DNA of 33,836 nt from Deltaproteobacteria bacterium (GTDB lineage Bacteria > Desulfobacterota > Dissulfuribacteria > Dissulfuribacterales > QOAL01): NCBI GenBank assembly GCA_015494395.1, contig WGBG01000125.1:1-33836 (forward strand), read 5' to 3'. Positions 2,340-9,338 of this stretch are shown here, one piece after another (position 1 is the first letter of the stretch; each line of letters starts with the position of its first letter). The translations under genes and the position numbers were made by a program. Under the pieces are notes generated by a model. It was given only the letters and a program-made list of their open reading frames with translations, searched no databases and was not told the DNA's origin.

Positions 2340-3548
2340 TTAATGACTGAGCTTACTGTCTTTACTGTCCAGGAAATAAAGCCATACCAGCGTTAAGAAG
2401 AAGAATGCAGAACCTGTTGCAGTCAGAATGAGAAACCAGTCCAGATGATTAAAAAATGCCAGTATTACAACAAGATAAATAAAATCACGCCTTGAGAGAA
2501 AGTCTGCTATCCTGGTAATGCGTTTTTTTCTCTTTGATGTGGATACAGATGTGAATAATGGCCCTTCTTCGGCTGTTTTGGTACGCATGGTCCTGAAATA
2601 GACAAGGCCTGCAGAGCCAAAAGTCGCAAATACAGACATCCATGAAAGGATAAGCGGAAGCAGATTGCCGGTCCGTTCATGCCATTCATGCCCTATAGCA
2701 TAAAAAACTGCGGCATGGACAATATTGTCACCCCAGAAATCAAGCACACCTCCAAACTTGCTTTCCAAAAACTTGATTCTGGCAATTTCCCCATCGCATC
2801 CATCAAGAATTGAATGGGCAAGAAAGAGCAGCGCCCCTGCGCTCTGATTGATGGTCCCCCCAAGGCTTATGAGATATGCTCCAATGATGCCTACAAGTAC
2901 GCTGAATATGGTCATCTGGTTTGGAGTGACAGGGGTATTTACAAGACGTTTTGAAATGGCAATGGAAATTTTACGTTCCACATACCTGGACATGAACCCT
3001 TCTGTGTCTTTTATAAGCCCTTGAAACAGGGCATCTTCCACACCTGGGACATCAGATTCATCCGTGACATTGTAAAGCCTTCCGGATTTTATATGCAGTT
3101 TTTCCACCATGTGGCTGCGGGAAGTTTCATTAAATGCCTCGTCAAAACTGTCTGGACGGAGAAAAAACGTGGAAATATAAGAAAAATGTTTTGAATCACA
3201 GATGAAAAGTGCCGGCAGCCCATCTAGTACATAGAGTTTTCCAGGCTGGGCAGAGGAAAGTAGTGTCTTGATAAAATCCACGTCCGGGAAATATCCTGGG
3301 CGAAGCACAATGCATCTTCCACACCGGATATCTGCTAGCGACCGTTCATTGGATATGATTACCGGGCATTTTGAATCGCCTTCCAAGGATATGTCTTCTG
3401 CACCTGATGTGATAACCATCACACCATCAATGCCGACTTTACGGGCGGTGCGGCAGAGCCGTTCAGTAAGTGTCAGGCCTGCGATTTTTCTCCTTAGCAG
3501 GTGTTCCTGTCCCTGTGCCGGAACTATGATAAAAGTACTGTTGTTCAT
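2340..3548 (-). CDS. CDP-alcohol phosphatidyltransferase with an N-terminal nucleotidyltransferase-like domain
   Basis: 402 aa; complete CDP-alcohol phosphotransferase motif DGCDGEIARIKFLESKFGGVLDFWGD (DxxDGxxARx8GxxxDxxxD) followed by hydrophobic segments; N-terminal ~190 aa GT-A-like but without a clear GxGxR loop. Confidence 0.85.
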   Translation of the reverse strand: MNNSTFIIVPAQGQEHLLRRKIAGLTLTERLCRTARKVGIDGVMVITSGAEDISLEGDSKCPVIISNERSLADIRCGRCIVLRPGYFPDVDFIKTLLSSAQPGKLYVLDGLPALFICDSKHFSYISTFFLRPDSFDEAFNETSRSHMVEKLHIKSGRLYNVTDESDVPGVEDALFQGLIKDTEGFMSRYVERKISIAISKRLVNTPVTPNQMTIFSVLVGIIGAYLISLGGTINQSAGALLFLAHSILDGCDGEIARIKFLESKFGGVLDFWGDNIVHAAVFYAIGHEWHERTGNLLPLILSWMSVFATFGSAGLVYFRTMRTKTAEEGPLFTSVSTSKRKKRITRIADFLSRRDFIYLVVILAFFNHLDWFLILTATGSAFFFLTLVWLYFLDSKDSKLSH

Positions 3549-3560
3549 ATCGGCATTGAA

Positions 3561-4595
3561 TTAATTTTCCAGGCCGCAAAGAGCTACCTTTTCCCCTTTT
3601 TCGCTGGACTCTGTACATTTTTCCATCATGCTCTGACACCAGCCTGCTTCAATAAAATTTTTTCCTGCCTGACCACTTCCTGAAATCTCATTAACAAACT
3701 CCCTGATCACCGAGGCATACCACTCAGGGTGATGGGAACCCTGGGAAAGTGCCTGGTCAAACGGAATTTCAAGGGTATTTTCGGCTGTTTCAAGTCGTAT
3801 TACATCATCATCAACAAGAAGCCTGCCCTGCTCCCCCTTTATCAGCACCGTATTTTTCCGGCTTTCTCCTGCCCAGGTAAAAAAAAGTTTTGCAATGGCA
3901 TCTTTATATCCAACTTCCACCTCTGCCGTATCCTCCAAAGGGATGTCTTTATACTTGAGGTTTGAAAGTTTACATTTAACCCAGAGGGGATTTTGGCCCA
4001 TCCATTGATTTGTCATATAAAAGGCATGCCAACCGTGATCCACCAGGATACCCCCGCCTGCCACAGCTGGATCAATGCGCCAGTTGTCTTTTACTCCAGA
4101 CTCCCCTGAGGTGATGGAGGGGCGTACTCTGATCACTCTATACTCAATTTCATTAACTTTCCCAATGGCGCCCTCAGTGATCAGCCTTGATGCCTCCTGG
4201 AAGATCGGTGCATAGCGCCAATTATGTACAGTGAAAACAATTCGCCCCTTCTCTTTAGAGAGTTTTTTTATTTTTATGTAATCTGCACTATCAAGTACCA
4301 GAGGTTTTTCACAAAGGACGTGCCTTCCGTGTTTGAGAGAGATCAGGATATTTTCAGCATGCATCCCGGGCGGGGTTGCAATATCAACAAAATCAACATC
4401 TTCCTTATTGAGCAGTTCCTCAAGTCTTGAATAGAACCGGGCGTCTGGAAGGTGCTTCCTGCAGCTCTCTTGAGCCTCTGGCATTATATCTGTAACGGCA
4501 GTAATGGAGACAGCATCTGTTTCTCTGTATCCAGGAAGATGGCCGTTTACTGCTATATTTCCAAAGCCTGCTATGGCGCCTTTTAGCTGTGACAT
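3561..4595 (-). CDS. Gfo/Idh/MocA-family oxidoreductase
   Basis: GAIAGFGNIAVNGHLPGY N-terminus, DIATPPGMHAENILISLKHGRHVLCEKPL motif. ORF track begins at a TTG (4601); ATG at 4595 (MSQLKGAIAG) is preceded by AAGGA and is the likelier start. Confidence 0.9.
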   Translation of the reverse strand: MSQLKGAIAGFGNIAVNGHLPGYRETDAVSITAVTDIMPEAQESCRKHLPDARFYSRLEELLNKEDVDFVDIATPPGMHAENILISLKHGRHVLCEKPLVLDSADYIKIKKLSKEKGRIVFTVHNWRYAPIFQEASRLITEGAIGKVNEIEYRVIRVRPSITSGESGVKDNWRIDPAVAGGGILVDHGWHAFYMTNQWMGQNPLWVKCKLSNLKYKDIPLEDTAEVEVGYKDAIAKLFFTWAGESRKNTVLIKGEQGRLLVDDDVIRLETAENTLEIPFDQALSQGSHHPEWYASVIREFVNEISGSGQAGKNFIEAGWCQSMMEKCTESSEKGEKVALCGLEN

Positions 4596-7888: not shown

Positions 7889-8634
7889 TATGATTCAGCC
7901 CCTGGTAAAAGAAGAGCGGGTAGCTCGGAGATGCTGGAGATTACGGGAACAGGCATGTTTTTGCATAATTTTTCTGATTCAGTGCGCCTGTCTTCCGGCA
8001 CCATCCAGATGGCACTCATCCCCATGCTCATGGCACCTTCTATATCCCTTTTAAAAGAATCTCCAATCATCACAGATTGCTGCGGTTCTATTCTCATTTC
8101 ATCAAGGGCTGCCCTGAAAATTGTGGGGTCAGGTTTGGTTGCTCCAACCACTCTTGAATCAATCAACACTTCCATTACTGCATCAAGCCCGGTTTCTTTA
8201 CATATTGCCCTTAGATTGCCATAGTTGTTGGAAATAATTCCAAGGCGATAGCGCTGCATAAGCCTATTAAGCACTGGCATTGCGTTATTTATGGAACGCA
8301 GCGAAGAGGCAATAAAATCATTTGAAATGGTTTTAGCAAGTCTGTCTGAATCTAGATTTTCCAGATCCAAGTTATCCAGAACCCTTCTGACCTGCTCATG
8401 GACAATCATGGTGAGGTTAAGCTCTGGGTTCCCCTCATCAACAAGTGAGTCATCTGCTTTATAAAAAGCCCTTACAAACTGCTCATAGTCATCAAATGTT
8501 ATGCCATGTTCCCTGCCATGTTTCTCATAAAAGGGCCAGAAATGTTCCTTCCATGCTATACCGTTAGAATCAAGAGTTCCGCCATAGTCAAAAAAAAGGA
8601 CCTCTATATTTTTTGATTCAACCTGGCTGTTCAT
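7888..8634 (-). CDS. HAD-superfamily hydrolase/phosphatase
   Basis: EVLFFDYGGTLDSNG, GIISNNYGN, GATKPDPTIFRAAL, MIGDSFKRDIEGAMSMGM. ORF opens at 8664, but ATG at 8634 (MNSQVESK) gives a 4-bp ATGA overlap with the upstream gene. Confidence 0.88.
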   Translation of the reverse strand: MNSQVESKNIEVLFFDYGGTLDSNGIAWKEHFWPFYEKHGREHGITFDDYEQFVRAFYKADDSLVDEGNPELNLTMIVHEQVRRVLDNLDLENLDSDRLAKTISNDFIASSLRSINNAMPVLNRLMQRYRLGIISNNYGNLRAICKETGLDAVMEVLIDSRVVGATKPDPTIFRAALDEMRIEPQQSVMIGDSFKRDIEGAMSMGMSAIWMVPEDRRTESEKLCKNMPVPVISSISELPALLLPGAES

Positions 8635-9338
8635 TTTTGGGCAGATTGTGTTTCTGACGTGCATTTAAGTGCCTGCTCTTCAATAAAGCCTATAAGTTCA
8701 TCAATGGAATGATCTTTAAGAAAGCTGGTGTACTCTGATTTTTTCATGGCAAGATCATTTACACCCTGGGCAGTAACAGTAACAATACGCCACTGATCTC
8801 CGTGCCGTACGCAGGTATAGTCAAGAGGTATGGACTTTCCTTCAGATGTAATGATAAATGTCCTTACAGTGCACCTGTTTTTTTTCTGCCTTATGGTTTC
8901 AGAAATCTTGAACTGTTCTCCTGCATAATTTTGAAAACGCTGCGCATAAATTGCAGAACTCATATGCCAGAAGGCTGTTACAAACTCCGAGCGTTTCTCT
9001 GGCGAAAGTTTCTTCCAATATTTTCCCAGCACCAGCCTGCTGGTAAGGGAAAAGTCAAAGAGTTTTCCCAGTACCGGCTCAAGAAGCTCGTATCGTTTGC
9101 TGCATGGGGCATCCTTTCCAAGTTTCATTGCCTTGATCAGGGTATCATGAAGCGTTTGTACACAAACTTCAGGGCTGGCGGTTTCTGCCGATGCCAAAGT
9201 TTCCTCACTGACTTTTGTTTCCTTTATCTCCCCGTGGTCATGCCCCATGCTTTCCAGGGGTAACATCGTGGAAAACATGCCTGCCGCACACATTATAATT
9301 GCAAGTTTCAGACAGTTTTGAAATTGTGAAACGGTCAT
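8631..9338 (-). CDS. hpnM: MlaC/Ttg2D-type substrate-binding protein, hopanoid-associated HpnM
   Basis: 235 aa, signal peptide-like N-terminus, PVLGKLFDFSLTSRLVLGKYWKKLSPEKRSEFVTAF...YAQRFQNYAGE typical of the MlaC fold; sits in hpnA-hpnL-hpnM order. Confidence 0.8.
   Translation of the reverse strand: MTVSQFQNCLKLAIIMCAAGMFSTMLPLESMGHDHGEIKETKVSEETLASAETASPEVCVQTLHDTLIKAMKLGKDAPCSKRYELLEPVLGKLFDFSLTSRLVLGKYWKKLSPEKRSEFVTAFWHMSSAIYAQRFQNYAGEQFKISETIRQKKNRCTVRTFIITSEGKSIPLDYTCVRHGDQWRIVTVTAQGVNDLAMKKSEYTSFLKDHSIDELIGFIEEQALKCTSETQSAQK

What the first reader, a model, noticed from the sequence alone, without database searches (positions are those of the whole stretch)
2340..9338. Head-group-like operon physically coupled to hopanoid transport genes
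Sequence: all genes from hpnA (11358) down to the CDP-alcohol phosphatidyltransferase (2340) are on the minus strand. hpnM and the HAD phosphatase share an ATGA overlap (8631-8634), and HAD and the NTP-transferase overlap as TAATG (~7886-7890). The ATP-grasp, aminotransferase, oxidoreductase and CAPT genes follow. Established: Gfo/Idh/MocA enzymes oxidise polyol/sugar hydroxyls, class-III aminotransferases aminate carbonyls, ATP-grasp enzymes ligate carboxylates to amines, NTP-transferases make CDP/UDP-activated alcohols, and CAPTs transfer the phosphoalcohol to a lipid. Inference: these could form one pathway making an aminated, possibly aminoacylated, polar head group for a phospholipid or a hopanoid. 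I know of no described pathway with this exact gene set.
Basis: partly seen in the sequence, partly recalled or inferred. Interest (0 to 1): 0.85.

Follow-up and report, generated by a model that had tools for sequence, protein, structure and literature searches.

The report
Hopanoid-linked aminoinositol-phosphate head-group operon
Next to the genes that move hopanoids (bacterial sterol look-alikes) sits a conserved six-gene set, shared across about ten bacterial groups, that probably builds an amino-sugar-like head group from inositol and joins it through phosphate to a hopanoid, a kind of lipid I found no report of.

Summary
The six genes are real, on one strand, with the stated ATGA and TAATG overlaps. 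They form a conserved cassette, HAD – NTP-transferase – ATP-grasp – class-III aminotransferase – Gfo/Idh/MocA – CAPT, found in many phyla when only the ATP-grasp was used as bait.

(1) All 50 cassette genomes tested (49 distinct) carry an inositol-phosphate synthase, against 13 of 30 hopanoid-making controls without the cassette; it often lies in the cassette. (2) In a 298-genome phylum sample, 18 of 22 cassette genomes have squalene-hopene cyclase, against 31 of 276 others; in some genomes one locus holds hopanoid genes, cassette and inositol-phosphate synthase together. (3) The NTP-transferase's best structural match is inositol-1-phosphate cytidylyltransferase, the CAPT resembles inositol-phosphate transferases, and the ATP-grasp weakly resembles inositol-phosphate kinases more than ligases.

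Most likely pathway: inositol-P → inositol → inosose → inosamine → inosamine-P → CDP-inosamine → hopanoid-phospho-inosamine, moved by HpnL/M/N. Each step is inferred; no chemistry was shown. Five hopanoid-free Elusimicrobia keep the core but lack this CAPT, supporting a hopanoid acceptor. Aminoacylation is not supported. The papers searched describe no such pathway or lipid.

The parts
2340..3548 (-). CDP-alcohol phosphotransferase (CAPT) with a degenerate N-terminal nucleotidyltransferase-like region; proposed final transfer of phospho-aminocyclitol to the hopanoid
   Evidence: PF01066 5.7e-11; IPCT/DIPPS NF041135 101 bits, below its 580 cut-off; PDB AF2299 and IPCT/DIPPS 4mnd; DGCDGExAR...G...D...D invariant in 23 sequences, no GxGxR..K signature in the N-terminal part
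3561..4601 (-). Gfo/Idh/MocA dehydrogenase (probable start ATG 4595); proposed inositol to inosose oxidation
   Evidence: PF01408 1.5e-21; best NCBIfam match inositol 2-dehydrogenase TIGR04380, 78 bits, below cut-off 355; alignment A5
4818..6155 (-). class-III PLP aminotransferase; proposed inosose to inosamine
   Evidence: PF00202 5.6e-99; putative PLP Lys284 and four Cys invariant in 18 sequences
6250..7155 (-). ATP-grasp enzyme without Pfam match; proposed inosamine kinase
   Evidence: AF2 pLDDT 89.9; Foldseek to LysX/ArgX, ITPK, Ddl; PF05770 inositol kinase touched by 16 of 30 relatives, RimK by 10; invariant D260, D273, N275
7184..7888 (-). nucleotidyltransferase; proposed CTP:inosamine-phosphate cytidylyltransferase
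   Evidence: PF12804; best Foldseek match 4jd0, inositol-1-phosphate CTP transferase of T. maritima; full-length profile match to 2xme IPCT; cassette-specific in whole genomes
7888..8664 (-). HAD phosphatase (probable start ATG 8634); proposed inositol-phosphate phosphatase
   Evidence: PF00702 9.9e-19; ATGA overlap with hpnM
8631..9338 (-). HpnM (MlaC-like periplasmic lipid carrier)
   Evidence: TIGR03481 167 bits, cut-off 160; PF05494
9341..10333 (-). HpnL (flippase-like membrane protein)
   Evidence: TIGR03476 303 bits, cut-off 196
10363..11358 (-). HpnA (hopanoid-associated epimerase)
   Evidence: TIGR03466 512 bits, cut-off 368
13308..14321 (-). HpnH (adenosyl-hopene transferase, first step to C35 hopanoids)
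   Evidence: TIGR03470 514 bits, cut-off 225
18049..20760 (-). HpnN (hopanoid RND transporter)
   Evidence: TIGR03480 979 bits, cut-off 752

Best explanation
The six genes are a biosynthetic cassette for a phospho-linked amino-cyclitol head group on a hopanoid. Inositol-phosphate synthase, encoded elsewhere in this genome (G000:C176), makes inositol phosphate from glucose-6-phosphate. The HAD enzyme removes the phosphate. The Gfo/Idh/MocA enzyme oxidises inositol to an inosose. The class-III aminotransferase converts it to an inosamine. The ATP-grasp enzyme phosphorylates it. The NTP-transferase makes CDP-inosamine. The CAPT transfers phospho-inosamine to a hydroxyl of a C35 hopanoid, giving a zwitterionic hopanoid phosphodiester, which HpnL, HpnM and HpnN move to the outer membrane. 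Shown: the genes, their families, their conservation, and their co-occurrence with inositol-phosphate synthase and hopanoid synthesis. Inferred: every substrate, the order of steps, the kinase role of the ATP-grasp, and hopanoid as the acceptor.
For: Cassette recovered with the ATP-grasp alone as bait: AT3 in 61/61 and GFO in 60/61 loci with downstream flank, HAD 50/57, NTP 48/57, CAPT 39/43; 29 of 43 fully flanked loci keep all six in the same order and strand (loci). NTP present in 26/26 cassette genomes at E<1e-45, including those where it is unlinked, and in 0/30 controls (best 1.5e-16). Inositol-phosphate synthase, long or INO1 type, in 50/50 cassette genomes versus 13/30 SHC+ cassette-negative genomes, p=1e-9, often directly next to the cassette. 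Phylum sample: SHC in 18/22 cassette genomes versus 31/276, p=2e-12. A single locus combines IspH, HpnH, HpnG-like, HpnM, HpnN, MlaA, HpnL, CAPT, GFO, AT3, ATP-grasp, NTP, HAD, INO1 and SHC (L178), and L172/L173 and L174/L175 are similar. Five Elusimicrobia without SHC and HpnH lack the cassette-type CAPT; all seven tested with SHC have it. NTP fold nearest to inositol-1-phosphate CTP transferase; CAPT nearest to inositol-phosphate transferases; ATP-grasp relatives touch the inositol-kinase Pfam model more often than RimK.
Against: No enzyme activity or lipid has been shown. Genomes are related, so the p-values overstate independence (in the phylum sample the 22 cassette genomes fall in 10 families, 7 of them with SHC). 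A few cassette genomes lack SHC, or SHC and HpnH (G015, G305, G316, G033), which may be MAG gaps or real. Hopanoid-free Elusimicrobia keep the core genes, so the activated product is not used only for hopanoids. The structural and profile evidence that the ATP-grasp is a kinase is weak: LysX and Ddl ligases score alike, and the single best profile match is PsnB, a peptide ligase. Foldseek margins for the NTP-transferase over RmlA are small. Family f63 lacks a GFO gene in the locus. In the window's own genome the INO1 gene is on another contig.
Confidence: 0.5

Rival explanations
1. Same inosamine head group, but on a glycerophospholipid (diacylglycerol acceptor, or CDP-DAG plus inosamine phosphate); linkage to hopanoid genes reflects shared membrane remodelling or transport, not a hopanoid acceptor.
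For: CAPTs mostly act on glycerolipids; PIP synthase and archaetidylinositol-phosphate synthase models match weakly. The cassette occurs in a few genomes without detected SHC.
Against: Strong SHC and HpnH association; cassette-type CAPT absent in the hopanoid-free Elusimicrobia that keep the rest; fused loci with SHC/HpnH. A separate cytidylyltransferase that makes CDP-cyclitol would be unnecessary with CDP-DAG.
Confidence: 0.2
2. The ATP-grasp is a carboxylate-amine ligase, and the head group is an acylated or aminoacylated aminocyclitol; inositol phosphate is activated directly by the NTP-transferase.
For: Most ATP-grasp enzymes of this fold are ligases; LysX/ArgX and Ddl rank among the top structural matches; PsnB is the best profile match.
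Against: The window protein reaches no ligase cut-off; the inositol-kinase Pfam model is touched by more relatives; the invariant second metal ligand is Asp (DVN) as in the ITPK stretch aligned, where RimK/Ddl-type ligases usually have Glu (own knowledge). The scheme leaves the HAD phosphatase without a clear role.
Confidence: 0.15
3. The cassette makes a soluble or cell-surface compound (a compatible solute like di-inositol phosphate, or a polysaccharide/LPS decoration), and sits near hpn genes by chance in this lineage.
For: Closest CAPT/NTP relatives include di-myo-inositol-phosphate enzymes; hopanoid-free Elusimicrobia carry the core without this CAPT; rmlA/rmlC lie just downstream in the window.
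Against: Repeated physical linkage to hpn genes in unrelated phyla and genome-level SHC association; transport partner genes HpnL/M/N travel with it.
Confidence: 0.12

Closest known systems
Di-myo-inositol-phosphate synthesis (MIPS + IPCT/DIPPS of Archaeoglobus, Thermotoga, Thermococcales)
   Same: Inositol-phosphate synthase, CTP:inositol-phosphate cytidylyltransferase fold, and a CAPT that carries an N-terminal IPCT-like region
   Different: Here the cytidylyltransferase is a separate gene and the CAPT N-terminal region has lost its signature; three extra enzymes (dehydrogenase, aminotransferase, ATP-grasp); tied to hopanoid genes
BHT cyclitol ether pathway HpnI/HpnK/HpnJ (PMC12583986)
   Same: Puts an amino-cyclitol head group on a C35 hopanoid
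   Different: Uses a glycosyltransferase, a deacetylase and a radical-SAM enzyme on a glucosamine unit; HpnI is absent from the window's genome and rarer in cassette genomes (14/50 versus 19/30 controls)
Streptidine-type inosamine synthesis (inositol, scyllo-inosose, scyllo-inosamine, its phosphate; own knowledge)
   Same: Same oxidation, amination, phosphorylation logic on inositol
   Different: Other aminotransferase family and other kinase; ends in an antibiotic, with no cytidylyltransferase or CAPT
Bacterial phosphatidylinositol / ceramide-phosphoinositol synthesis
   Same: Inositol-phosphate synthase plus a CAPT
   Different: Use CDP-diacylglycerol with inositol phosphate (phosphatidylinositol route), no amination step; models match far below cut-off
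HpnO, aminobacteriohopanetriol
   Same: Class-III aminotransferase acting in hopanoid synthesis
   Different: HpnO acts on the hopanoid side chain itself and is usually outside the hpn cluster (PMC12583986); here the aminotransferase lies in a cyclitol/CDP cassette

Membership tests
IPCT/DIPPS (NF041135) | full-length match above the curated cut-off (580 bits) | tested here: not met
   101.3 bits, over the CAPT half mainly
IPCT/DIPPS (NF041135) | active N-terminal nucleotidyltransferase signature (GxGxR...K) fused to the CAPT | tested here: not met
   N-terminal ~170 columns keep only scattered residues; signature absent in 23 sequences; the intact signature is in the separate NTP gene
CDP-alcohol phosphotransferases (PF01066) | D-x2-D-G-x2-A-R-x8-G-x3-D-x3-D motif and Pfam cut-off | tested here: met
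   43.5 bits versus 22; motif invariant
Inositol-1-phosphate cytidylyltransferase | fold and full-length profile match to solved IPCTs | tested here: inconclusive
   4jd0 is the top Foldseek match (E 4e-17) but RmlA is close (2e-16); 2xme matched over the full length at 5e-8, with other sugar nucleotidyltransferases scoring higher
ITPK inositol-phosphate kinases (PF05770) | match above Pfam cut-off | tested here: not met
   16 of 30 relatives touch it, best E 0.0045; the window protein has no match
RimK/LysX-type ATP-grasp ligases | match above Pfam or NCBIfam cut-off | tested here: not met
   TIGR00768 25.6 bits versus 143.4; RimK touched by 10 of 30 relatives, best E 0.0049
Hopanoid hpn cluster | HpnA, HpnL, HpnM, HpnH, HpnN above NCBIfam cut-offs, and SHC in the genome | tested here: met
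   SHC at G000:C102, 674 bits
BHT cyclitol ether route | HpnI present | tested here: not met
   no HpnI in G000 or in G340 of its family; HpnJ and HpnK not searched
Inositol-phosphate pathway | inositol-phosphate synthase in the genome | tested here: met
   INO1-type at G000:C176:1624-2721, E 5e-149 and 62% identity to an INO1-type query whose own NCBIfam match is TIGR03450 mycothiol_INO1 at 418 bits, below its 638 cut-off
Phospho-linked hopanoid lipid | the lipid itself detected | not testable with these tools
   needs lipid mass spectrometry

The most novel reading that the evidence does not exclude
A new class of membrane lipid exists: hopanoids carrying a zwitterionic phospho-inosamine head group, made by a dedicated pathway spread across about ten bacterial groups (Deltaproteobacteria/Desulfobacterota, Thermodesulfobacteriota, Methylomirabilota, Rokubacteria, Elusimicrobia, Nitrospinota, Nitrospirae, Alphaproteobacteria, Acidobacteria, Hydrogenedentota), with a new ATP-grasp inosamine kinase.
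Probability: 0.42. Interest if true: 0.9.

Novelty: new variant of a known kind. Interest (0 to 1): 0.75.

Why it matters
Hopanoids are membrane-ordering lipids and the parents of geological biomarkers, yet many lineages that carry hopanoid genes have, to my knowledge, never been chemically examined, and HpnA, HpnB and HpnL still have no established role (PMC12583986). A phospho-linked hopanoid would behave like a true phospholipid, would be easily missed by methods that hydrolyse or derivatise polar head groups, and would give HpnL/HpnM a concrete cargo to test. It also makes a specific mass prediction that can be checked in enrichment cultures (for example Methylomirabilis).

Tried and rejected
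Using PF07994 alone suggested that half the cassette genomes lack inositol-phosphate synthase; this was wrong, because they carry the INO1 type that the model misses. A ligase role for the ATP-grasp was tested by fold, Pfam and PDB profile and could not be confirmed or excluded. HpnO identity of the aminotransferase could not be tested, as no NCBIfam model for HpnO appeared among the matches. Papers: no hit for hopanoid with inositol-1-phosphate synthase, none for aminoinositol with phospholipid; hopanoid plus phosphoinositol gave seven papers in which the two seem unrelated, judged from titles and abstracts and from reading the matches in one of them. CopD, amidase, pseudouridine synthase and PEP carboxykinase neighbours were lineage-specific and set aside.
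Full report
Observation. The window is contig C125 of a 3.2-Mb, 206-contig draft genome. The six genes from 2340 to 8664 and hpnM, hpnL, hpnA are all on the minus strand. The ATGA overlap of hpnM with the HAD gene and the TAATG overlap of HAD with the NTP-transferase are in the sequence. 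HpnA, HpnL, HpnM, HpnH and HpnN pass their curated cut-offs, and the genome carries squalene-hopene cyclase on another contig.

The cassette is conserved. With an alignment of the ATP-grasp protein alone as bait, one scan of 85,488 species genomes returned 80 loci in Deltaproteobacteria/Desulfobacterota, Thermodesulfobacteriota, Elusimicrobia, Nitrospinota, Nitrospirae, Methylomirabilota, Rokubacteria, Alphaproteobacteria, Acidobacteria and Hydrogenedentota. The other five genes were not used to select these loci, yet the aminotransferase is in 61 of 61 and the oxidoreductase in 60 of 61 loci with enough flank, HAD in 50 of 57, NTP in 48 of 57 and CAPT in 39 of 43; 29 of 43 fully flanked loci keep the same order and strand. 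Where the NTP gene is not adjacent, it is elsewhere in the genome: it was found in 26 of 26 cassette genomes searched at E<1e-45 and in 0 of 30 hopanoid-making controls at that level.

Link to inositol. The gene most often found next to the cassette, besides an HpnL-like one, is inositol-phosphate synthase, in two forms: the long form detected by PF07994 and the INO1 form related to TIGR03450. Counting both, all 50 cassette genomes tested have one (49 distinct, since G004 and G155 give identical matches), against 13 of 30 genomes with SHC but no cassette. The window's own genome has the INO1 form at C176. The NTP-transferase model (pLDDT 96) has the T. maritima inositol-1-phosphate CTP transferase as its best structural match, though RmlA is close. 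The CAPT is closest to AF2299 and to IPCT/DIPPS, and keeps the full catalytic motif; its N-terminal region looks like a decayed nucleotidyltransferase. The oxidoreductase's best curated relative is inositol 2-dehydrogenase, well below the cut-off.

Link to hopanoids. In a sample of 298 genomes of the window's phylum, 18 of 22 cassette genomes have SHC over the cut-off, against 31 of 276 others. In the 80-genome panel, 41 of 50 cassette genomes have HpnH over its cut-off. In G040 a single stretch holds IspH, HpnH, an HpnG-like gene, HpnM, HpnN, MlaA, HpnL, the six cassette genes, INO1 and SHC; G048 and G049 are similar. The Elusimicrobia give the sharpest contrast: seven with SHC have the cassette-type CAPT; five with neither SHC nor HpnH keep the core but have only distant CAPTs or none. 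HpnI, which opens the known cyclitol-ether route, is absent from this genome and is rarer in cassette genomes (14 of 50) than in controls (19 of 30).

Mechanism. Read in reverse, the operon order GFO, aminotransferase, ATP-grasp, NTP-transferase matches oxidation, amination, phosphorylation, cytidylylation, with HAD supplying free inositol and CAPT making the phosphodiester. This uses every gene once and parallels inosamine synthesis in streptidine (own knowledge). The ATP-grasp step is the weakest: the fold matches ligases and ITPK kinases alike; the kinase Pfam model is touched by 16 of 30 relatives and RimK by 10; the best PDB profile match is the ligase PsnB, followed by ITPK1. The invariant IDVNAWP stretch resembles the aligned ITPK1 IDINAFP. 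I place the kinase reading at about 0.6.

Limits. All steps are inferred from sequence. The genomes are related and many are MAGs; completeness is unknown for those reached through loci. Fisher values ignore relatedness. G015, G305 and G316 have the cassette and a related CAPT but lack SHC, or SHC and HpnH; G033 has only an SHC fragment and a distant CAPT match. Family f63 lacks the oxidoreductase in the locus. The literature library is open-access only; within it no phospho-inositol or phospho-inosamine hopanoid was found, and the 2025 survey of Alphaproteobacteria does not mention inositol.

Noticed in passing
window 4818-6155 (aminotransferase): Four cysteines (C184, C187, C196, C200; CYRC...PxCGxxC) are invariant in all 18 aligned sequences, suggesting a structural metal site.
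   Followed up: no
L129, L130, L141 (family f63): HAD, NTP, ATP-grasp and aminotransferase are kept but no GFO homologue is nearby; a B12-binding radical SAM protein lies next to the CAPT and could replace the oxidation step or act on the lipid.
   Followed up: partly
L166, L167, L169 (family f44): Genomes with SHC, HpnH and long inositol-phosphate synthase, with a related CAPT and a weak NTP-like neighbour, but no ATP-grasp/aminotransferase/oxidoreductase cassette: possibly a non-aminated inositol version.
   Followed up: partly
L090 (G000:C102) 17-3185 and 9502-11879: SHC is followed by a lipid-kinase-like ORF (judged by eye, not scanned); a second CAPT (441 aa) is followed by another such ORF on the same contig.
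   Followed up: no
window 14392-15348: 318-aa ORF between ispH and hpnH without any NCBIfam match at E 0.001.
   Followed up: no
window 25272-26567 and 27047-28306: Two similar, tandem HD-domain (c-di-GMP phosphodiesterase-like) proteins next to each other.
   Followed up: no
window 546-1981: rmlC- and rmlA-like dTDP-sugar genes directly downstream of the cassette on the same strand.
   Followed up: no
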